Position numbers and translations under genes: made by a program. 64,000 nt of DNA from Gadus chalcogrammus. Its lineage: Eukaryota > Chordata > Actinopteri > Gadiformes > Gadidae. Shown piece after piece: positions 24,801 to 61,632 of the stretch; position 1 is the first letter of the stretch; every line of letters starts with the position of its first letter. The stretch lies in the NCBI RefSeq assembly GCF_026213295.1, contig NC_079414.1:12702490-12766489 (forward strand), given 5' to 3'. The notes beneath the pieces were generated by a model, which saw only the letters and a list, made by a program, of their open reading frames with translations, was not told the origin of the DNA and ran no database searches.

Positions 24801-27800
24801 ATGGCTTAAAATGGCTTGACCAATCAATGAAATGCTGAGTAGACAGGATGTATACCGTTACACCCTAATGCTTCATTGATTGGTTGATAATCTATGGCTT
24901 GTGGGCCAATTGTGGGCTTGAAAATCTTACCAGTGACTTTGAGCGAGTAGGGATCATTGGAATTAACCGCTATCTCCCATAATCCCGTCTGATTGTCAGT
25001 GTGGAGGCTGAAGCGTCTCAGGTTGCCCACGGTGGAGAAGGTTCCCAATGGGCCGCTGGGCTGGCTGGAGTCCTGGGAGGTACCTGCACAACAGGTACAC
25101 ACAGTATAGTACAGAGCCGGCAAAAGTGCTCCAGATTTAAGGCCCAATCCCATTCATACCCCTTACCCCTCCCCAGACATGCCGTGGTACCTGAGGAGCT
25201 TGTGAGGTTAAAGGTGAGGGAAGCAGCTCCTGTGATATAGGCAGTCAGGTTTCTCATGGATCCGTCCACCTGGAAGCTGAAGGTGTCTGGCTTCCCTGGC
25301 TTCCTTATAGCCTGGATCAGTGTGACCTGCCATAGTGAGAGCAACAGAACAGGGGTTCAGCTCAACACACTGCTCATCTGGTCCACTACTGAATGGAGTA
25401 CCGTTCAGTATGAAGTTCTGCACATAGCAGAAACCTTCATGTGTAGGCTTCATTGTGCGAGTGCTAGCTAAAGTCTACACTTGCTGCAATGCAAGGTGTT
25501 CAAGCACCTTCTTTCAAGTGGTTTGAAACAGGTTTAAATTGTTTGTACTGCAGGTTGTGCTGGTATTGCAGGTTGATAGGTAACTGAACTGCCGAAGGTT
25601 GCAAGGTTGATGTCTTTCCAAAACCTTACTAGGTTACAAACATACAATTGATTTCTGTTAAAATCTCCCCTATTGTACATGTAGCTAGGTTGCCAAAATA
25701 GCAACCACTGCTTGGCAGGTTACGTTTATGCTGCAGTTTGTTTGGTTTCTGTTCTACCCCCGCCAAGTTGTGTTCGTGCCGCAGGTTTCTAGGTTACAAT
25801 CGTACCACAGCGGGGGCTGAAAAGTCTTCTATGACGCTAGTGGCCAGGGTCAGGTCTGACTTGGTGACCTCTATGGCCAGTCCTCCAGAGGCCTGAGCCA
25901 GCTCCCGGTACAGCTGGACATCTAATTGGCTCATGACCCGCAGAGTCCCTCCCTGAGCCTCACGGCGGCGCCGTCGACTGGCCGTTACATCTGTCAACAT
26001 GAAGGTCACCTGGAAGTGGGAACAATATGAAAAAGTACAGTCTTGGAGTTGGACAATCAACAGTGCCCCATGCAATCACAGATGAACCACTAACAAAGAG
26101 ACACGGATAAGACAGCCAGACAGACAGACAGACAGACAGCCAGACTTACCACAGACTTGGAGCTCTCTATGAGGGCAGTGATGGCACCTTTTAGGTGTGT
26201 GTCTTTTGCAGGAGCGTCAGTGAAGACGAAGATCTCAGAGGAGGGAGGAGCTGCCGCCAGGGCCAGCTGGTCGCAGGGACAGGAAACACGGACCAATGAA
26301 AACTTGTTAGAAGGTAGTTGGCATGCCTCACAGACCATCAGGTACTCAAGATGGAGAAGAAAGAAAAATATTAATGAAAGAACAATGAAGACGTCAAAAG
26401 ACGCAACAAGCAACTTGTTTCAAACAGCTCCATCAAATTTTCTTCTCGCTACAGAGTTATTATTTTATGGGACACTGCCGAGACTCTAGTGACAGCATGA
26501 ATGAACTGCTTTTACCTTTTTAGTCCTAAAAACGATTCAGTATTCAGTCAGTATTTGTTCCCATTATCAGTAGGAATGCACCAAGCTAGTAACCTTTCAT
26601 GGCTGATACTGCTTTCATAAACAGTGGGGGGTTTAAAACATAAGTACACTAGATTTATTGGTAGATGCCCTTTTCACGGCATCTACCAATACATTTGGAC
26701 CGTGTACATGGGAGGCTGATATTTAAACTAACAATTGCAAACCTAACAGTTAGATATTTGTCTTAATAATATCTCTAATGGATTGGGTGTGTCCACACCA
26801 GAATATTTTTTTGCACCCAAATATCTGCAGTCTATCTATATGCTTCCACATATCCTGAATCGTATTGATTTTATGAATATATGAATATATGGAACATATA
26901 TATATGTATATATATAATATACGAGTCCCACCTGCAGTCCGGACAGGCTGAGTTCTGGTGTATCTCCTCCTCCAGATGCTGTCAGCCGGTTGATGTTTGC
27001 TTTGAACACATCTGCATCTGTTGTGATGAACAACGGGCCAAAACCTGGACATCACAAAGGTGAATGAATATTAGTTTCATGGTTACGGTTGGTTGAAATT
27101 GGTCATACAGCCAGCCAGACAGACAGACAACCAGACAGTGAGACAGGCAGACAGACAGTGAGACAGGCAGACAGACAGATTGACAGGTAGCCCGGCAGAC
27201 CAACACCCAGGCAGCCAGACAGAGACCTGGATCGTTGAAGGGGACCAGGATGTAGGCTGAGGGTTCCTCCTGTGTTCCTCTCTTGCTGTCTATGATGGAG
27301 AAGGACACCCGCTTGGCCTCGGCGATGTCATCGCTCATGCTGCCCGTGGTGTCGATGACGAAGCACAGCACAGAAGACTGGGAGAGGCCCATCAACCTGG
27401 GCCAGAGCAGAGCAGGGGAGCACGGATGTAGAACACAGCCACCTCAAGGGTTCGGGTCACCCCCGATTCAGAACAAAACCCCTGGGTTAGCGGAAAGCGT
27501 CGCGCAATTTCACACACGTCCATTTCAAACCAGCTCCGTCTTCGCTCGCTTCAGACGGCTGTCCGATCGAGCCAAAGTGAACTGAAACGTGTCCCAACAT
27601 GGCTGCCTGAAGTGTCAGCCGCAACGCTCCTGGTGCTGGATACTATTAGATCCAATTTAACCACTATTCACTACCAGCCTCAAGGCTTGTCGAAGGCTGG
27701 GGAAGTCTTTTTGTATGGCGGCTGCCGCAATACAGACACCATGTAGAGCGCTTTACAGTAGGCAGGAATCACATTTAAGGAAAAGCATTTAAAGAGATTT

Positions 27801-46941: not shown

Positions 46942-47245
46942 TCATGCAAAATAGTCCCGAATGTGTGGAGGATCCAATTTAAAAAAATGTGATGTTTGAT
47001 TACCATACAGGCAAGTGAGTGCATTTCGTAACAAAGCAGATACAATGTACAGTTTACCTACACTACTCAACCCAATTTTTAAATTTTTCTTAAAGTCCAT
47101 GAACTTAAAATAGTTTGCGATGTCTCCAAACATCCACTCTACAGACACTCTCACTTCACTCATGCCTTTGTTGAATGCCATCATCTGGGGAGTGAGATTG
47201 ACATTTCTAAATGGGGCCTGGAGGTGGACACGCAGTGGATATGCC
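46942..47245 (-). pseudogene. Harbinger DDE transposase, C-terminal part (split)
   Basis: From the insertion border it reads PAYPLRVHLQAPF, then SEVRVSVEWMFGD, which contains the catalytic Glu of the DDE_Tnp_4 domain, then KIGLSSVGKLYIVSALLRNA and CLYGN, ending at a stop near 46942. The open frame extends artificially into the terminal repeat of the inserted element. The N-terminal two thirds are at 58942-59835, 11.7 kb away. A TTTATT (AATAAA on minus) lies at 46790-46795. Confidence 0.88.
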
Positions 47246-47558
47246 GGTGTTGTGTCGAGATCGGTTTCCCCATCGAGATGTGTTTCCCCTAGTCCCCGCC
47301 CCCGTCCGAAATTACCCGAAGAGCGAAGGAAGCGCGCGTACACAAAAAGCTCGCCCACGAGCTGCTGTGCTCGTACCACAGAGGCACTACGGAGAGAGCT
47401 AAGGTTCAAAACTGACTTTTTTTTAGCGAGTTTTATCTGAAGATGTTGTATTGTAGATTTCTATCATTAAATTCATTTATTTTCGTGAGAGACTTTTCAT
47501 TTTGAATGTTATGGACTTTTGGAAGGAAGTGTGCTCATTCATAATACTTTCACATACA
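47246..47558. repeat. Left terminal inverted repeat (unique part)
   Basis: Matches 58631-58941 inverted, with a handful of differences. GC-rich outside (CCCCGCCCCCGTCCG) and AT-rich towards the array. Confidence 0.9.
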
Positions 47559-50235
47559 GTTCCCCCTCTGTTCCATAGGAAAGGAGGCTCACACATCTTT
47601 CAAATTCATACTGCTGACTTCTTTCCCCACAACAGATAAGTGCTGCGATTTTCAGGCTGATATCACTCAATTTGACCATTTAGAACAGGGGGAACGCATC
47701 CTGACAGCTTGGAATATTACTGTCAGATACCGTTCCCCCTCTGTTCCATAGGAAAGGAGGCTCACACATCTTTCAAATTCATACTGCTGACTTATTACCC
47801 CACAACAGATAAGTGCTGTGATTTTCAGGCTGATATCACTCAATTTGACCATTTAGAACAGGGGGAACGCATCCTGATAGCTTGGAATATTACTGTCAGA
47901 TACCGTTCCCCCTCTGTTCCATAGGAAAGGAGGCTCACACATCTTTCAAATTCATACTGCTGACTTATTACCCCACAACAGATAAGTGATGTGATTTTCA
48001 GGCTGATATCATTAAATTTGACCATTTAGAACAGGGGGAACACATCCTGATAGCTTGGAATATTACTGTCAGATACCGTTCCCCCTCTCTTCCATAGGAA
48101 AGGAGGCTCACACATCTTTGAAATTCATACTGCTGACTTATTACCCCACAACAGATAAGTGCTGTGATTTTCAGGCTGATATCACTCAATTTGACCATTT
48201 AGAACAGGGGGAACGCATCCTGACAGCTTGGAATATTACTGTCAGATACCGTTCCCCCTCTGTTCCATAGGAAAGGAGGCTCACACACCTTTCAAATTCA
48301 TACTGCTGACCTATTACCCCACAACAGATAAGTGCTGTGATTTTCAGGCTGATATCATTCAATTTGACCATTTAGAACAGGGGGAACGCATCCTGACAGC
48401 TTGGAATATTACTGTCAGATACCGTTCCCCCTCTGTTCCATAGGAAAGGAGGCTCACACACCTTTCAAATTCATACTGCTGACCTATTACCCCACAATAG
48501 ATAAGTGCTGTGATTTTCAGGCTGATATCATTCAATTTGACCATTTAGAACAGGGGGAACGCATCCTGACAGCTTGGAATATTACTGTCAGATACCGTTC
48601 CCCCTCTGTTCCATAGGAAAGGAGGCTCACACATCTTTCAAATTCATACTGCTGACTTATTACCCCACAACAGATAAGTGCTGTGATTTTCAGGCTGATA
48701 TCACTCAATTTGACCATTTAGAACAGGGGGAACGCATCCTGACAGCTTGGAATATTACTGTCAGATACCGTTCCCCCTCTGTTCCATAGGAAAGGAGGCT
48801 CACACATCTTTGAAATTCATACTGCTGACTTATTTCCCCACAACAGATAAGTGCTGTGATTTTCAGGCTGATATCATTAAATTTGACCATTTAGAACAGG
48901 GGGAACACATCCTGATAGCTTGGAATATTACTGTCAGATACCGTTCCCCCTCTCTTCCATAGGAAAGGAGGCTCACACATCTTTGAAATTCATACTGCTG
49001 ACTTATTACCCCACAACAGATAAGTGCTGTGATTTTCAGGCTGATATCATTAAATTTGACCATTTAGAACAGGGGGAACACATCCTGATAGCTTGGAATA
49101 TTACTGTCAGATACCGTTCCCCCTCTCTTCCATAGGAAAGGAGGCTCACACATCTTTGAAATTCATACTGCTGACTTATTACTCCACAACAGATAAGTGC
49201 TGTGATTTTCAGGCTAATATCACTCAATTTGACCATTTAGAACAGGGGGAACGCATCCTGATAGCTTGGAATATTACTGTCAGATACCGTTCCCCCTCTG
49301 TTCCATAGGAAAGGAGGCTCACACATCTTTGAAATTCATACTGCTGACTTATTACCCCACAACAGATAAGTGCTGTGATTTTCAGGCTAATATCACTCAA
49401 TTTGACCATTTAGAACAGGGGGAACGCATCCTGACAGCTTGGAATATTACTGTCAGATACCGTTCCCCCTCTGTTCCATAGGAAAGGAGGCTCACACACC
49501 TTTCAAATTCATACTGCTGACCTATTACCCCACAACAGATAAGTGCTGTGATTTTCAGGCTGATATCATTAAATTTGACCATTTAGAACAGGGGGAACGC
49601 ATCCTGACAGCTAGGAATATTACTGTCAGATACCGTTCCCCCTCTGTTCCATAGGAAAGGAGGCTCACACATCTTTCAAATTCATACTGCTGACTTATTA
49701 CCCCACAACAGATAAGTGCTGTGATTTTCAGGCTGATATCACTCAATTTGACCATTTAGAACAGGGGGAACGCATCCTGACAGCTTGGAATATTACTGTC
49801 AGATACCGTTCCCCCTCTGTTCCATAGGAAAGGAGGCTCACACATCTTTGAAATTCATACTGCTGACTTATTTCCCCACAACAGATAAGTGCTGTGATTT
49901 TCAGGCTGATATCATTAAATTTGACCATTTAGAACAGGGGGAACACATCCTGATAGCTTGGAATATTACTGTCAGATACCGTTCCCCCTCTGTTCCATAG
50001 GAAAGGAGGCTCACACATCTTTCAAATTCATACTGCTGACTTATTACCCCACAACAGATAAGTGCTGTGATTTTCAGGCTGATATCACTCAATTTGACCA
50101 TTTAGAACAGGGGGAACGCATCCTGATAGCTTGGAATATTACTGTCAGATACCGTTCCCCCTCTCTTCCATAGGAAAGGAGGCTCACACATCTTTCAAAT
50201 TCATACTGCTGACCTATTACCCCACAACAGATAAG
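47559..50235 (+). repeat. 173-bp satellite array, left arm (about 15 units)
   Basis: Sixteen occurrences of GTTCCCCCTCTSTTCCATAG at 173-bp spacing from 47566 to 50155. Units differ at a few fixed variable sites. Each contains GGGGGAACGCATCCTGACAG, a roughly 12-bp AT-rich loop and CTGTCAGATACCGTTCCCCC, an imperfect palindrome. Every unit also gives short open frames on both strands, but 173 is not a multiple of 3, so they do not chain and are not genes. Confidence 0.97.
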
Positions 50236-52359
50236 TGCTGCAACAGAACCAATAGATGTTTCGGCTCCAACAGAACTATACACAACACCGGCGCCGCAGC
50301 AACACAGCAACCCACCAGTTGTTCCCGTCCCTGCTCCTGTCCCTCCCATAGCCCAAGAGACGTCACCGGCGGCACCACAACAACAAACACTAACTCTGCG
50401 GCCTCCTCAAGTGAACTGGCTGAGTTTTCTGCCAAAGCAGTTCTTAAAAGTCATAAATCAGGCTGACCGGGAGTGGATCGCACAGATCCTATATGACCGA
50501 ACAGGACAGCTAAAACAAAAGCTCACTCAGAACTGGTACCATCCTCCAAGCCCCACTAGATCCACCTCACCTTCAGATCCACTGCACTACTTTAGGCAGC
50601 GGATGTTCCTGTGGGCTCCAATGAGGATGTGGAGCATCCCTCTTAAATGCACATTGTGTAAAAGGAAGATGCACCACTCTGGCATTTACACAAAAGTGAG
50701 AGAGGTGATAGATGTGGACTCCAGATATTATCTGGTAGGTGGAGACTACCCAAGGTGCAGCAAATGCATGATCCCTGTCTGCCCTTGGAGTAGTGAGATC
50801 TTGCAGCAGCTGGATCCCTCCCACCGTAACAAGTTTCCTGCTGTCCTAACGACACAGCAGGCACTGGACAGGAAGTGTGTCACAATGTTGCGACCACGCA
50901 CGGTAGGGAACAGCTCCAGCTACTCGCAACAGGTCTTGCAGGAGGTGCACAGCGAGGAGTGGGCGAGGCGTACTATAGACTACCTCACTGATTGTGAGGT
51001 CCATAAAAAGTCGTGCGTCCTCACCCAGTCCGAACCTGTATATCAACAGCCACCCACCTTCAGTCGTCTGCCCCTGGCTCAGTGGTTTGAAACCGTCCAC
51101 ACGAATGAGGTTCTTGGCCACCTGGAGGAGTTGAACGGTGTTATAACATCAACTTATGGCAGAATCTTAAAGCTGGACTCCACCAAGAAGGTAAAAGATA
51201 ACTGATGTAAATTTGTTCTCATTCGTGTTTATTAGTATGTCCAATGATTTGCTAATGTCTTCTGTAGATCACTAAAAAGCTGGCAGGTGGCATTGAGAAC
51301 ACGGCCACGTGGATGAGCAACATCGGCAATGAACTTGGCCAAGTTCTCAACTCAGTGCTGACCACTGGTGAGGGGGCTGGCCTTGATGACCTGTGCCAAG
51401 GCGTTGTCCGGAGGTACAGGGATGCTGGTGAGCCAGAGCCAGATGCCATACATGGACAGGGACTGCTGCAGTGAGTCAGGTGTGTTGCCTTCAATTTGTG
51501 CTGGGATGTTTCTTATGAATTTGTTGTTTGATGAATAGTTTTAGCAGTATATTAATGAAATTGGTAATGTGTTGACTGGAAACAATCTGAATTACTTGTA
51601 TTTATGGCGTGTTGTTTATTATAGGGGAGAAACCCAGTTCTCACTTGGTTTCGTCCATGGACCTTCACAGTGAGACTGGATGTGTTTCATTTCATGAGGC
51701 GTTTCACCAATGGCCTGACCACTGAGCATCCTTCCACTATATGGCACATTCTGCTCAAAACTTTCCAGCTGCATTTTCAAATGGGACAAAGCAGACATTG
51801 AAAAGTTGCAGCAGGCCAAGAGGGCAGAGCTGGTGAAAAAACACCCGGGTCACAATCCTACCCACAGCCAGGTGTTAGCGAGCATCACCTCCAGCGAACT
51901 GGCTAAGCACTGCCGCAGGAAAACGCAAGGGGTTGAGGAGACTCGCGCCCTCATCCAACAACTGTTGGACTCCATGTGGGACCTCACAGACACCACAGGG
52001 TTATCGCTCATCAACAAGGAGAGCATGTCTCGTGTGTGGGAGGTGCAGCAGAAGCACTTGCCCTGCATCCAAGATCCAACTGGTGTACAGTTGTACATCA
52101 ACACCGGATCAAAGTTGGAGAAGGGGGATAAAGCACTTGACGTCCTGAGATGTGCCAGAGGGTCCTCCTCTCTCGAGAGCTTTCATAAGCATCAATGCTG
52201 TTTCATCCCAGGCAAGTTGAAACACTTAACATTTAAAATACTTTGTTAATGTATCAAGATGTGATTAAGCTGTGTCTTACTCTTAAGTATTAAAATCTGC
52301 ATTTATTATTACACTAATGTCCATGTTGCAATGTATTTTGAATGTTATATCTCCCTTGT

Positions 52360-52505
52360 GAGTCGCTTTGGATAAAAGCGTCTGTTGAATGACTAAGGCC
52401 CAATCCCATTTCTACCCCTTACCCCTTACCCTTACCCCTCCCCCTTGTTTTGAAGGGGGAAGGGGGAAGGGGAAGGGGTAGGGGTAGAAATGGGATTGGG
52501 CCTTA
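52360..52505. mobile_element. SINE-like tail plus 110-bp hairpin element in intron
   Basis: GAGTCGCTTTGGATAAAAGC (52361-52380) is a common teleost repeat tail. Directly after it 52396-52505 is an inverted repeat (AAGGCCCAATCCCATTTCTA and its complement at the other end) with a GGGGAAGG-rich centre. A single arm of the same sequence lies at 25138-25175 in a vwa7 intron. Confidence 0.8.
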
Positions 52506-53897
52506 ATGTAAATGCAAGTTGTTTTAACATTCTTTTTTTTCGTTTTCGTTAATACCTTTTTCTTGCCAGGGTGGAGATGTAATGCTCTGCACACGCAAAT
52601 GTATATGCTGGAGGGGTTGTCCAGATGGAACATCAATCGGGCCCAGCAGGCTCTGAATATGAGTGTCACGTCACAAACTCGAATTTATGGTGTTCGTCTG
52701 ATGTCCAGTGTGAACGCCCTCAGCAACAGAGTCCTGGGAAGTGCACTTCTTCAAGAGTTTACACCCCCGGGTAAACCTACCGGTAAGATTCTCATGGCAA
52801 CAAAAGAACAGATGCTGAACAATATTCTATTAGTGCCAAACTGCCAGATCATGATGGTTACACTCACTCTTTCTACTTCAATCTTATTTTTCCTGGTGAC
52901 TACTTATGGCAGGTGAGCTTATTGCGGTGGAGTATTTGCTGGCCCAGTCCAACAGAGGAGATCTGCTGAGTGCGCCTGACGCAATTGGCGCCAACCTGCC
53001 AGAGGGGCCGGAGGAAGTTCAGGAGGATGAGTTTCCGGATGAGACAATACCTCAGGCCACTGATATTCTTTTCCCTTCTTCTTCTCAGGTAATGATGTGA
53101 TAGCCCTTTGATAATCTATCAGAACATCCTCCTCATCGTTACCCGCTTATCCGGGGTCGGGTCGCGACCTATCTATCAGAACATTTTCACTGTAAATCTA
53201 ATTTGATAAGGGTAATTCCTTTGTGTTACATGGGCACAACAAAGTTCACCTCACTGTACTCTCATTCACTTCTTTCAAATAATTCCCTTTAGGAACCTAC
53301 GGCTGAAAGTGAAGGTGCATCTCAGAGTCCTGTCAGCTCCCCATTTGAGGACAGTGGGCCTATCACTTGAACTCCGGTAAAGTAGCTAATGTCTGACAAT
53401 TAGAAATGCTTATTCCTTCAGTGTTTCTCTTAATTTAGCGATACAAACTGTTTTTGTTTTCATTTCATATGACAGGATAGTCGGTGTGATCCCAGAGGCA
53501 TTCCCGGATGGGAGGCAGTCGATGCCTTGGCAGGGTACCTTGTCAGCCTCAACCGGACGATAACTGCTCTTTCGAACCAAGAAATAGCAGATATACTGAG
53601 GTTGTACTCCAGCCTGGATGGAATCGACAAGTCCCCAACAAAGTACTCCCTAAGAAATAAGAAGACGACCTTGCCAGGGCCATGGAGAGCTTCTCGGAAA
53701 CGCAGTGGCTCTGCTCCAGGCCAACAAGCAGCCGAGAGGTACCTGCAAACAATCAGCTTCAAGTATATGTGTGTAGCTGTGTGTTCATGTGTAATTAACT
53801 GCATACACATACACTTTAATGGTGTGTGTATATATACATTTAATATACTTGTAATATATGTGTGTAAAAGTGTGTTTGTACATTTGTATGTAACATA

Positions 53898-53901
53898 CAG
53901 G

Positions 53902-53947
<46 letters not shown>
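53898..53947. repeat. (TA)n microsatellite in transposase intron
   Basis: About 25 AT units followed by CACACACA in the intron between exons 53476-53738 and 54034-54291. Confidence 0.93.
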
Positions 53948-53958
<11 letters not shown>

Positions 53959-54529
53959 CCACAAAACAAACACACACATTTTGTGTTTACAGTACACACA
54001 CAATGTTAGTTATATTATCTTGCCTTTTCGCAGATTGTTCATGGTTCATGGCCAGGCTGCCCATAGACCCGATTACACCAGGGTCTCTGAGTGTGTTGCA
54101 CTGAAGCTTTTCAAGGAGTTCAAGGAAGGCAGAAATAGACCAAAAGACCCTAAGGGGAGGACATTTGCAATTCCTCAGGCTATTGTCATGACGTATGGTC
54201 ATATTAAACAATTAATTGAGGATTGCCAACAAATCCTGCAAAGCACCAACCTGGTACTGGTGACCATAAATAATGCAACAGTCTCTTCTTGGTGAGTTAA
54301 TTTTTACTGCTTCATATATTCCCTTCAAAAGGACTTATAAATTCATAGGCACATGCATTCAAAACGTATAATGACTAAAAAACAATGTGAAAAACTCTGA
54401 TCCCCCCCCCCAAATAGGCTGCAGGATCGGCAGAAGAGGGCCGACCGCGATTCTCTGCTTCAAGGGGTGGAGCTTCCTCAGCAGGTCCACGTGGCAGAGG
54501 AATCCCTCCTGGAGGCCCTGGACATCTGA

Positions 54530-56340
<1,811 letters not shown>

Positions 56341-58630
56341 CTTGTCTGAGCCTCCTTTCCCATGGAACAGAGGGGGAACGGTATCTGACAGTAATATTCC
56401 AAGCTGTCAGGATGCGTTCCCCCTGTTCTAAATGGTCAAATTTAATGATATCAGCCTGAAAATCACAGCACTTATCTGTTGTGGGGTAATAAGTCAGCAG
56501 TATGAATTTCAAAGATGTGTGAGCCTCCTTTCCTATGGAACAGAGGGGGAACGGTATCTGACAGTAATATTCCAAGCTGTCAGGATGCGTTCCCCCTGTT
56601 CTAAATGGTCAAATTTAATGATATCAGCCTGAAAATCACAGCACTTATCTGTTGTGGGGTAATAAGTCAGCAGTATGAATTTCAAAGATGTGTGAGCCTC
56701 CTTTCCTATGGAACAGAGGGGGAACGGTATCTGACAGTAATATTCCAAGCTGTCAGGATGCGTTCCCCCTGTTCTAAATGGTCAAATTGAGTGATATCAG
56801 CCTGAAAATCACAGCACTTATCTGTTGTGGGGTAATAAGTCAGCAGTATGAATTTGAAAGATGTGTGAGCCTCCTTTCCTATGGAACAGAGGGGGAACGG
56901 TAACTGACAGTAATATTCCAAGCTATCAGGATGTGTTCCCCCTGTTCTAAATGGTCAAATTTAATGATATCAGCCTGAAAATCACAGCACTTATCTGTTG
57001 TGGGGTAATAAGTCAGCAGTATGAATTTCAAAGATGTGTGAGCCTCCTTTCCTATGGAACAGAGGGGGAACGGTATCTGACAGTAATATTCCAAGCTGTC
57101 AGGATGCGTTCCCCCTGTTCTAAATGGTCAAATTGAGTGATATTAGCCTGAAAATCACAGCACTTATCTGTTGTGGGGTAATAAGTCAGCAGTATGAATT
57201 TGAAAGATGTGTGAGCCTCCTTTCCTATGGAAGAGAGGGGGAACGGTATCTGACAGTAATATTCCAAGCTATCAGGATGCGTTCCCCCTGTTCTAAATGG
57301 TCAAATTGAGTGATATCAGCCTGAAAATCACAGCACTTATCTGTTGTGGGGTAATAAGTCAGCAGTATGAATTTGAAAGATGTGTGAGCCTCCTTTCCTA
57401 TGGAACAGAGGGGGAACGGTATCTGACAGTAATATTCCAAGCTATCAGGATGTGTTCCCCCTGTTCTAAATGGTCAAATTTAATGATATCAGCCTGAAAA
57501 TCACAGCACTTATCTGTTGTGGGGAAATAAGTCAGCAGTATGAATTTCAAAGATGTGTGAGCCTCCTTTCCTATGGAACAGAGGGGGAACGGTATCTGAC
57601 AGTAATATTCCAAGCTGTCAGGATGCGTTCCCCCTGTTCTAAATGGTCAAATTGAGTGATATCAGCCTGAAAATCACAGCACTTATCTGTTGTGGGGTAA
57701 TAAGTCAGCAGTATGAATTTGAAAGATGTGTGAGCCTCCTTTCCTATGGAACAGAGGGGGAACGGTATCTGACAGTAATATTCCTAGCTGTCAGGATGCG
57801 TTCCCCCTGTTCTAAATGGTCAAATTGAATGATATCAGCCTGAAAATCACAGCACTTATCTGTTGTGGGGTAATAGGTCAGCAGTATGAATTTGAAAGGT
57901 GTGTGAGCCTCCTTTCCTATGGAACAGAGGGGGAACGGTATCTGACAGTAATATTCCAAGCTGTCAGGATGCGTTCCCCCTGTTCTAAATGGTCAAATTG
58001 AGTGATATTAGCCTGAAAATCACAGCACTTATCTGTTGTGGGGTAATAAGTCAGCAGTATGAATTTCAAAGATGTGTGAGCCTCCTTTCCTATGGAAGAG
58101 AGGGGGAACGGTATCTGACAGTAATATTCCAAGCTATCAGGATGTGTTCCCCCTGTTCTAAATGGTCAAATTTAATGATATCAGCCTGAAAATCACAGCA
58201 CTTATCTGTTGTGGGGTAATAAGTCAGCAGTATGAATTTGAAAGATGTGTGAGCCTCCTTTCCTATGGAACAGAGGGGGAACGGTATCTGACAGTAATAT
58301 TCCAAGCTATCAGGATGCGTTCCCCCTGTTCTAAATGGTCAAATTGAGTGATATCAGCCTGAAAATCACAGCACTTATCTGTTGTGGGGTAATAAGTCAG
58401 CAGTATGAATTTGAAAGATGTGTGAGCCTCCTTTCCTATGGAACAGAGGGGGAACGGTATCTGACAGTAATATTCCAAGCTGTCAGGATGCGTTCCCCCT
58501 GTTCTAAATGGTCAAATTGAGTGATATCAGCCTGAAAATCACAGCACTTATCTGTTGTGGGGAAAGAAGTCAGCAGTATGAATTTCAAAGATGTGTGAGC
58601 CTCCTTTCCTATGGAACAGAGGGGGAACTG
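56341..58630 (-). repeat. 173-bp satellite array, right arm (about 13 units)
   Basis: Fourteen occurrences of TGGAACAGAGGGGGAACGGT at 173-bp spacing, inverse to the left array. The outermost unit on both sides shares the CTTTCCCC variant (GGGGAAAGAAG here). A run of variant units (TAGGAATATT, GACCTATTAC, TTTCCCC) occurs in both arms in the same outside-to-inside order. Confidence 0.97.
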
Positions 58631-58941
58631 TATCTGAAAGTATTATGAATGAGCACACTTCCTTCCAAAAGTCCATAACATTCAAAATGAAAAGTCTCTC
58701 ACGGAAATAAATGAATTTAATGATAGAAATCTACAATACAACATCTTCAGATAAAACTCGCTAAAAAAAAGTCCGTTTTGAACCTTAGCTCTCTCCGTAG
58801 TGCCTCTGTGGTACGAGCACAGCAGCTCGTGGGCGAGCTTTTTGTGTACGCGCGCTTCCTTCGCTCTTCGGGTAATTTCGGACGGGGGCGGGGACTAGGG
58901 GAAACACATCTCGATGGGGAAACCGATCTCGACACAACACC
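58631..58941. repeat. Right terminal inverted repeat (unique part)
   Basis: Inverse of 47246-47558 with few differences. It ends within the Harbinger transposase exon 2. Confidence 0.9.
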
Positions 58942-59835
58942 TGTTCTCCATATAGGCACATTGGATGTCCCGCAGGGGACACTGCATGCTCTTCCAGCAC
59001 AGGTAGCAAACCAGAGTCTGCTAAAAGGCCAGAATCATGTTTCCTTCCCTCTGCAATACAAAATAGGTAAACATGTATCACATCAAACACAGCAATAGGA
59101 GTATACCTAAATGTGACCCCCCCCCCCCCCCCCCCCCCATGTAACACGTTGTCACATAAGACCTAACTTACCTACTGGACCATGCAGATTGGCGATTAGG
59201 CCATTTGGGATGGCAACTGCCTGGAATTTTAGGCTGTGTACCCTTTTGTGGCCATTGTACAACACCCGTTGGTTTAATCCCGGTCTGGCGATAGGTCGTA
59301 CTGTGCCGTCAATAAAGCCAAAACAATTGTCCAGTGGTGCGCCCATCTGCTGGATGCAGTCCGCATATGTTTGCAAAGCGACTGGATTCAAAATACTGTT
59401 GTTCCACTCAGTAATTTTGTGATGGTGAATATCATATAAGAAATCCAGCACGCAATTCGTTGCCATACACAAGACTGGTACTGGTCGCTGCCCAAATCGC
59501 TGCATCATGTCGCTGTAACGGCATGGGTATGCTAACCTCTTCAGTAACATGCACAGCGCCTCTGTGCCATCCACCACACTTCTCTGCTCGCAGACGAACT
59601 CGGTGGGTATGCCGAGAGCCTCCACCAGCAGTGGTATGTCTGCTTTTCTTACCCGGAACTCCGCAAGGCATTCATCGTCCTTCATTTCGACCAGATTAAA
59701 GGGTCTATAATCGTTGTATGGCAAGTCTAAATTGCTGGACCGGTTCTCTTCGTAGAGTAATACAAACTCCTCGTCCGTAATTAAGTTGTCATCCAACGCA
59801 AATATCAAATGCTCTCGGGCCATTTTAAGAGACAT
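58942..59835 (-). pseudogene. Harbinger DDE transposase, N-terminal part (two exons, split)
   Basis: Exon 1 (59172-59835) starts MSLKMAREHLIFALDDN and contains a helix-turn-helix-like region (RLAYPCRYSDMMQRFG) and the first catalytic Asp in FGFIDGTVRPIARP. A 121-bp intron (GTAAGT...TTGCAG, with a long C/G run) is followed by exon 2 (from 59050) with the second catalytic Asp in SGLLADSGLL, then SPAGHPMCLYGE. There the 11.7-kb insertion begins. The rest, with the catalytic Glu, is at 46942-47245. No other lesion is seen, so the gene was probably intact when hit. Confidence 0.9.
59120..59140. repeat. Poly-C run in transposase intron
   Basis: About 20 consecutive C in the small Harbinger transposase intron. 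Confidence 0.95.
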
Positions 59836-60160
59836 AATGACCTAATACGTACTTTTAGATACTTTTAGTTTAAAAAAAACCTTTAACATCGGATCAGGTG
59901 GACGAATACAGAATACGAAATACAGAAAGATGTCCGCAAGAAGTAGCCGTTGACAGTTACAATGTTGCTTAATGATAGTGGATTACCACTACTACGGCAA
60001 CTCGTTGGAATGTTCGGGGACGCCGTAGCCGTCCCTCTACCGTCGCTGCTTAAAGTCCCTATTGGGACAAACGGCTGCGGCGCACACATGCAAACCCATA
60101 GCGAGTGACGTAGGACGTAAAGTCCCGCCCAGGTCGAAGTGGCGTCGATTTAGAGAGTCC

Positions 60161-60616: not shown

Positions 60617-61632
60617 AGAGCCCATGCCATTAAAATCACATTTTTCCTATTGTTTGTTAAATAACATAGGTCTGAATAAGTTTGTGAGCTGTGGTAAGTT
60701 TGAAATCTATGCAGTTTGTCTGCTGAATGCAATAGGCAATGAAAGGAAAAAGGCAGAAGAAATGAGCCGATCTGGATAAGGTGACACTGTGACGTAGCGT
60801 TGTCAAACTATTATTAATGGCCCTGCCCACTTGGTTGGTTTGTAACCACCCACAAGAATTCTGAAAGAGTCGTGATTGAGCTAGTGCTAAATGCTAATAC
60901 GTGTACGGTAGTTGCTTAGTTCGTAGTAACAGGCTAGTTACAGAATTTTGAATGCAAGGGCAGAATGACATCGAAGTACATAAACTGCGACTTGCTGCCT
61001 GCCGCCGGTTGCCGCGAGGCACCACCGCCGCGAAGCACCACCGCCCGGCAGCGGGCAGCCGGGCGGTGGTGCCTCGCGCCGGCAGCAGGCAGCAGGCAGC
61101 AGGCAGCAGGCAGCAGGCAGCAGGCAGCAGGCAGCAGGCAGCAGGCAGCAGGCAGCAGGCAGCAGGCAGCAGGCAGCAGGCAGCAGGCAGCAGGCAGCAG
61201 GCAGCAGGCAGCAGGCAGCAGGCAGCAGGCAGCAGGCAGCAGGCAGCAGGCAGCAGGCAGCAGGCAGCAGGCAGCAGGCAGCAGGCAGCAGGCAGCAGGC
61301 AGCAGGCAGCGCACGGTTCTGTCTACTACAGATTGATGTGGAAGTGGAAGAACCAGAGACGTCGGAGAACCCGACGAAGTCCTTTGTGATTCATTATATC
61401 GTCTGGACGTGCACACAGCTTTTGGCCGTGATAATATGTATTATTTGATATAGATATCTATGTATTATATGATATTATTTAGATATAGAGCTCCAGGACT
61501 GTAACGCAATTGTTGTACACTTCCTTGTTATTTGGATAACCGTTCTGCTGTTGGTGTGATGGCGCATAACACGTCGGACTCTCGTCTCTGGTATTTCTAC
61601 AACGAGACTCGTAGTGGGGGTTATCTCATCTT
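60617..61632 (+). mobile_element. Second AGAGCCC/TTAA element copy, right-truncated
   Basis: It starts AGAGCCCATGCCATTAAAAT next to TTAA (60613-60616) and follows the inverse of 16847 to about 16095 closely. Similarity stops after GGGGGTTATCTCAT at 61632. The heptamer array listed next is an expansion within it. Confidence 0.88.
61080..61310. repeat. (GCAGGCA)33 heptamer array
   Basis: About 231 bp of perfect 7-bp repeats. The equivalent position in the copy at 16410-16440 has only two or three units. Seven is not a multiple of 3, so the LLPAACC-like open frames in all frames are artefacts. Confidence 0.97.

What the first reader, a model, noticed from the sequence alone, without database searches (positions are those of the whole stretch)
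47246..58941. 11.7-kb transposon whose inverted ends are built of 173-bp satellite arrays
Two arms of 2.6-3.0 kb, mainly 13-15 units of a 173-bp satellite each, in inverse orientation, enclose a single multi-exon transposase-like gene. Borders are exact because the element splits a Harbinger ORF. Long arrays inside terminal inverted repeats could supply many transposase binding sites or seed satellite DNA elsewhere. I do not know a described family with this layout.
Basis: partly seen in the sequence, partly recalled or inferred. Interest (0 to 1): 0.93.

Follow-up and report, generated by a model that had tools for sequence, protein, structure and literature searches.

The report
Fish transposon with satellite-built inverted arms
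An 11.7-kb jumping gene in a fish genome, likely Alaska pollock, has two inverted arms built mostly of a 173-bp repeat around one broken gene predicted to encode its transposase; shorter repeat-armed copies sit elsewhere in the same genome, and such elements would offer a way to study how transposons make and spread satellite DNA.

The parts
47246..47540 (+). left outer tip, 295 bp, begins GGTGTTGTGTCGAGATCGG; contains two 18-bp repeats
   Evidence: matched in 28 other loci of the same genome
47541..50240 (+). left array, 15.6 copies of the 173-bp unit
50241..54905 (+). multi-exon DUF6729 gene, predicted DDE transposase; frame breaks near 51455 and 51727; upstream exons of some relatives not found; the stretch before about 50440 is weakly supported
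56232..56342 (+). 111-bp inner segment next to the right array, shared in whole or part with four other copies (L047, L051, L055, L058)
56343..58646 (-). right array, 13.3 copies of the 173-bp unit, inverse orientation
58647..58941 (-). right outer tip, 295 bp
46942..47245 (-). one half of the interrupted Harbinger gene
58942..59841 (-). other half of the interrupted Harbinger gene; its first letters TGTT stand where the three uninterrupted copies have GGAT

Best explanation
This is an 11,696-bp DNA transposon that split a Harbinger gene at a CCGG site in a fish genome (likely Alaska pollock), with inverted arms made of a 295-bp tip plus 13 to 16 copies of a 173-bp unit, and it was likely moved by a predicted DDE-type transposase of the DUF6729 family, of which it carries a broken copy. 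Shown: the borders, the uninterrupted sites, the target, the other copies and the state of the gene. Predicted: the RNase H-like, ISCth4-like fold of DUF6729 relatives with conserved D, D, E residues. Inferred: the transposase recognises the tips, with the array units perhaps as extra sites, cuts the element out and joins it at CCGG, leaving either a 4-bp CCGG duplication (ends TGTTG...CAACA) or none (ends GGTGTTG...CAACACC). Short copies, which keep tips and one to a few units, would arise by internal deletion and move in trans. Array length would change by unequal exchange and by conversion between the arms.
Confidence: 0.6

Rival explanations
1. Composite or passenger: the DUF6729 gene was captured between two non-autonomous foldback-type arms, and an unrelated transposase moves these ends.
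For: No second copy found with gene and ends; different interior in L047 and L058 beyond 56232; tip-like stretch at 50289 minus; DUF6729 has many copies elsewhere in the genome.
Against: The unit as a whole sits in one otherwise uninterrupted site, so it moved as one or was rebuilt inside; DUF6729 is itself a predicted DDE transposase; among the open frames listed from single-ended copies I recognised no other DNA transposase, by eye only.
Confidence: 0.3
2. A hAT-derived foldback element, as the similar Atlantic cod MITE was classified.
For: Cod family gadMor-hAT-1784 has about 600-bp inverted repeats of 167-169-bp units and was called hAT-derived; one of 120 listed DUF6729 relatives, P0042 of Gadus morhua, also bears PF05699 (name recalled), perhaps a fused gene model.
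Confidence: 0.08
3. Assembly artefact joining unrelated arrays.
For: Arrays are hard to assemble.
Against: Three uninterrupted sites, a restored frame, and 28 further loci with the same tip.
Confidence: 0.02

Closest known systems
gadMor-hAT-1784 / gadMor-hAT-8043 (Atlantic cod, PMC12368964; section 8 and passages read)
   Same: Same genus if the species inference holds; inverted repeats made of tandem units of 167-169 bp; short non-autonomous copies.
   Different: Unit here is 173 bp; the cod consensus has no ORF and was called hAT-derived; the paper's main text holds neither 'TSD' nor 'target site'.
Tetris foldback transposon (Drosophila virilis, PMC4079207; abstract and section 10 read)
   Same: Outer domain, then about 220-bp tandem repeats inside long inverted ends, variable middle, a MITE-like relative.
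   Different: Tetris has no apparent coding capacity and 8-9-bp duplications (9-10 in rearranged copies); here a DUF6729 gene and a CCGG target.
Galileo (P superfamily, PMC4168063; passages read)
   Same: Long inverted ends that can hold direct tandem repeats (about 140 bp in D. willistoni; expansion also reported in D. mojavensis); transposase gene in some copies.
   Different: P-superfamily transposase with THAP domain and mostly 7-bp duplications; in D. willistoni the tandem repeats are in one copy, without transposase segment.
Muta1 (MULE, Aedes aegypti, PMC5225508; passages read)
   Same: Subterminal tandem repeats inside the inverted ends; classed there as a type 2 foldback element; encodes its transposase.
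   Different: Units of 12 bp, 145-bp ends, 8-9-bp duplications.
Spy (PHIS superfamily; through passages of PMC4482050)
   Same: DDE transposon reported without target duplication.
   Different: Target AAATTT; Harbinger-like transposase.

Membership tests
Foldback-type architecture | long inverted ends with internal tandem repeats, outer domain and variable middle | tested here: met
Foldback-type architecture (Tetris kind) | 8-9-bp target duplication | tested here: not met
   none in the 18 copies tested; uninterrupted sites of the window copy
DDE/RNase H transposases | RNase H-like fold with conserved D, D, E | tested here: met
   predicted model of a relative and conserved motifs; no activity tested
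MuDR/MULE superfamily | 8-10-bp target duplication | tested here: not met
   definition from a passage of PMC5225508
MuDR/MULE superfamily | IS256/MULE-like catalytic domain with C/DxxH motif | tested here: inconclusive
   best fold match ISCth4 (that it is IS256 family and that IS256 is MULE-related is recalled), LDxxH in 104 of 120 relatives, but no Pfam MULE match at E up to 10 in 25 relatives
hAT superfamily | 8-bp (5-7 in variants) target duplication | tested here: not met
   definition from a passage of PMC12730594
hAT superfamily | hAT transposase domain | tested here: inconclusive
piggyBac/Kolobok kind | TTAA target and duplication (recalled) | tested here: not met
   target is CCGG
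Spy | insertion in AAATTT without duplication | tested here: not met
   target is CCGG
Dada | 6-7-bp duplication, insertion in small RNA genes | tested here: not met
   the window copy lies in a Harbinger gene; definition from passages of PMC8869645
gadMor-hAT-1784 | sequence identity to the cod consensus | not testable with these tools
   consensus not held; only text of PMC12368964 was read

The most novel reading that the evidence does not exclude
DUF6729 proteins are the transposases of an unrecognised superfamily of animal DDE transposons that insert at CCGG, whose inverted ends grow by satellite amplification into arrays of transposase-binding units; the ORF-less repeat-armed MITEs at Atlantic cod inversion breakpoints are derivatives of the same kind.
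Probability: 0.3. Interest if true: 0.8.

Novelty: new variant of a known kind. Interest (0 to 1): 0.62.

Why it matters
The closest repeat-armed elements found here in print, Tetris and the cod MITE, have no transposase of their own. In this genome a copy with a predicted transposase gene, a defined target (CCGG), uninterrupted sites and dozens of derivatives with different unit counts occur together, so array growth, arm-to-arm conversion and mobility can be compared copy by copy. If the family is the one, or a sister of the one, at Atlantic cod inversion breakpoints, it offers a candidate enzyme and a testable insertion rule for elements proposed to have caused large inversions. It would also suggest a function for the DUF6729 domain, a name that no paper in the held library contains.

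Tried and rejected
Chance or artefact: rejected by the reversed-pattern control (0 against 9) and the uninterrupted sites. Viral contigs: one 19-nt match, L001, shares nothing more with the window than the 19 letters and short chance matches; the DUF6729 exon and the satellite core found nothing in viral contigs, and the satellite core nothing in prokaryote contigs. Shared motif of tip and unit, as evidence for binding sites: not significant (485 of 2000 shuffles as good); two inverted copies of a CGTTCCCC..CTGTTC motif inside the unit are (4 of 2000; stretches chosen by eye beforehand) but unexplained. Zero target duplication: I first read the copies with CA or TG flanks as proof of no duplication; the three uninterrupted sites have CCGG where the window has CC..TG, so that proof fails for the window and I leave the duplication open. 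Sequence search of solved structures with the family profile: one match, E 0.17, a 70-residue chain named DBAct553_1, not significant. Pfam on 25 relatives: besides DUF6729 and, in one member, ExoX-like_C (5.4e-06), only weak matches, among them zinc ribbons and CxC3 of KDZ transposases at 0.16 in one member. The P0002 model gave no clear fold match; the shorter P0017 model did. Another mobile gene inside the single-ended copies: open frames were listed and read by eye only; a LINE-like fragment in L051 is such a by-eye reading. Literature: DUF6729 in no held paper; searches gave the precedents named; I make no claim about print beyond those searches.

Full report
What was checked. The two arms are real and exact. 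Tandem Repeats Finder gives arrays of period 173 at 47541-50240 (15.6 copies) and 56343-58646 (13.3 copies); the arms 47246-49844 and 56343-58941 are 98% complementary. Each arm is a 295-bp tip followed by the array. The two tips differ at 2 of 295 positions. The arrays align in register: 13 unit pairs differ by 2.0 on average against 4.7 for all left-right pairs, with two extra units on the left. This fits recent common origin or conversion between the arms.

The host site. The element splits a Harbinger gene. Joining the flanks gives an open frame. The joined 160 nt match three other places of the same genome over the full query, C18 and C13 at 99% and C7 at 97%. Sixty to sixty-six letters of each show GCC|GGATCTCC at the junction, with no bases added or lost, so the target was CCGG. 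At the window's right junction the letters GGAT are TGTT, so that the joined frame reads E-Q where the uninterrupted copies would read D-P (my translation). The whole 11,696 bp therefore came in at one point, or was rebuilt inside afterwards.

The genome. The window lies in contig C3 of a 629.9-Mb assembly. Contig C1 is 28,941,121 bp, the same length as the source contig of protein P0071, named Gadus chalcogrammus. I infer that species; no call states it.

The family. The 19-nt tip occurs 9 times, the reversed control 0. The 295-bp tip gives 51 matches (40 of 72 candidates scored, so a lower bound), which I group into 29 loci including this one. All 28 others were fetched. In 27 of 28 the 173-bp unit is present beside the tip, the exception being L057; 17 of 28 show both inverted ends in the DNA fetched; 11 have one end or a broken end. 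Two-ended copies are 453 to 1,214 bp long (1,259 if the outer tip of the nested L053 is counted). In the 454-479-bp copies L061-L067 tips of about 78 and 51 bp enclose two units. A search with one unit gave 134 matches (40 of 60 candidates scored) and, by my grouping, 18 further loci; six were fetched, five have tips at both ends and one, L103, is a free-standing unit; the other 12 were not read. No array longer than the window's was listed.

Target. Of 49 intact tips in held DNA (L050, a duplicate of L049, left out), 38 are preceded by CC, 10 by CA, 1 by CG. In 19 copies with both flanks the joined letters are CCGG 12, CAGG 2, CCTG 1, CATG 1, CCGA, CTTG and CGTG 1 each. Related uninterrupted sites were found for L063 (90 of 104), L064 (66 of 79) and, in a minisatellite, L049 (84 of 94); the L063 and L049 sites differ from the joined letters at or beside the junction. 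At a CCGG target, ends GGTGTTG...CAACACC without duplication and ends TGTTG...CAACA with a 4-bp CCGG duplication give the same letters. Copies with CA flanks look like evidence for no duplication, but 7 of the 10 read AACA (1,078 of 10,918 NNCA words in held DNA do), and in the window this flank differs from all three uninterrupted copies. TGTT is also letters 3-6 of the tip. A junction repaired with letters copied from the tip is my guess; that the parent copy already differed is not excluded. I leave the duplication open. A search for duplications of up to 12 bp in 18 two-ended copies showed none of 7 or more.

The gene. Pfam finds DUF6729 at E 2.9e-82. Relatives: 540 proteins at E up to 0.001, the best 120 listed, from fish and also lancelets, scallop, pearl oyster, brachiopod, sea urchins, starfish, priapulid and a sea anemone. 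Alignment of 13 relatives places exons between about 50,213 and 54,905; the stretch before about 50,440 is proline- and glutamine-rich and weakly supported. The frame is broken near 51455, at VDRDCC, and near 51727. Exons for the N-terminal zinc-finger part of some relatives were not found; the N-terminal matches elsewhere in the window look like simple repeats. Motif patterns in the 120 listed relatives: DSTKK 104, VDRDCC 80, SLESFH 104, LDxxH 104, three acidic motifs together 61; several of the 120 are fragments. One of the 120, P0042, also bears PF05699, recalled as a hAT domain. [quoted passage not shown]

Is the gene the mover of these ends? Not shown. This genome has 137 DUF6729 matches, counted stretch by stretch; by coordinates none but the window's lies between the tips listed. 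The closest pair that I saw is a short copy on C17 about 8 kb from a DUF6729 match. L047, L051, L055 and L058 share all or part of 56232-56342 with the window and then leave it at 56232; L047 and L058 go on alike. A tip-like stretch stands at 50289 minus. So a captured gene or an exchanged centre remains possible (0.3). For the cognate reading speak the position of a predicted transposase in the one long two-ended copy and the insertion of the whole unit at one site.

Arrays. Nearly all tip loci read keep at least one unit, as expected if units help mobility, but common descent explains it too. The tip shares no significant motif with the unit (485 of 2000 shuffles as good), while the unit holds two inverted copies of a CGTTCCCC..CTGTTC motif (4 of 2000).

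Elsewhere. Four predicted proteins from other public contigs are readings of the unit and five of the tip. P0125-P0128 run into different flanks, so other copies exist in public data; P0129 is a diverged tip (read by eye).

Comparison. Foldback-type elements already have this layout: Tetris (abstract and section 10), Galileo (passages), Muta1 (passages). Closest is gadMor-hAT-1784 of Atlantic cod, about 600-bp inverted repeats of 167-169-bp units, no ORF, at inversion breakpoints of chromosomes 1 and 7, called hAT-derived (section 8 and passages). The present element differs by unit length and by carrying a DUF6729 gene. I file it as a new variant of a known kind.

Noticed in passing
58942-58945 and flanks of L043, L046, L053, L102: AACA/TGTT letters beside some ends; in the window they stand where three uninterrupted copies have GGAT. 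Could be repair copied from the tip.
   Followed up: partly
50270-50289, minus strand: A tip-like stretch (first 10 letters exact, 3 mismatches in 17) at the left inner border, preceded by GCC.
   Followed up: partly
52394-52505: A short palindromic repeat nested between exons of the gene, with pieces at 25137-25174.
   Followed up: no
L103 (C13:22741950-22742480), 181-353: A single free-standing 173-bp unit with no tip in the 531 bases fetched.
   Followed up: no
G000 C1:0.29-1.36 Mb, C7:0.19-0.37 and 4.76-5.07 Mb, also C5, C14, C17, C18: DUF6729 matches cluster in a few regions of the genome.
   Followed up: no
61075-61377: A minisatellite of 7-bp step that matches the flank of copy L049/L050.
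   Followed up: no
L049 and L050: Two copies on C15, 0.55 Mb apart, with identical 30-nt flanks and different unit numbers (about 1.5 and 2.5): likely a duplicated insertion whose array changed length.
   Followed up: partly
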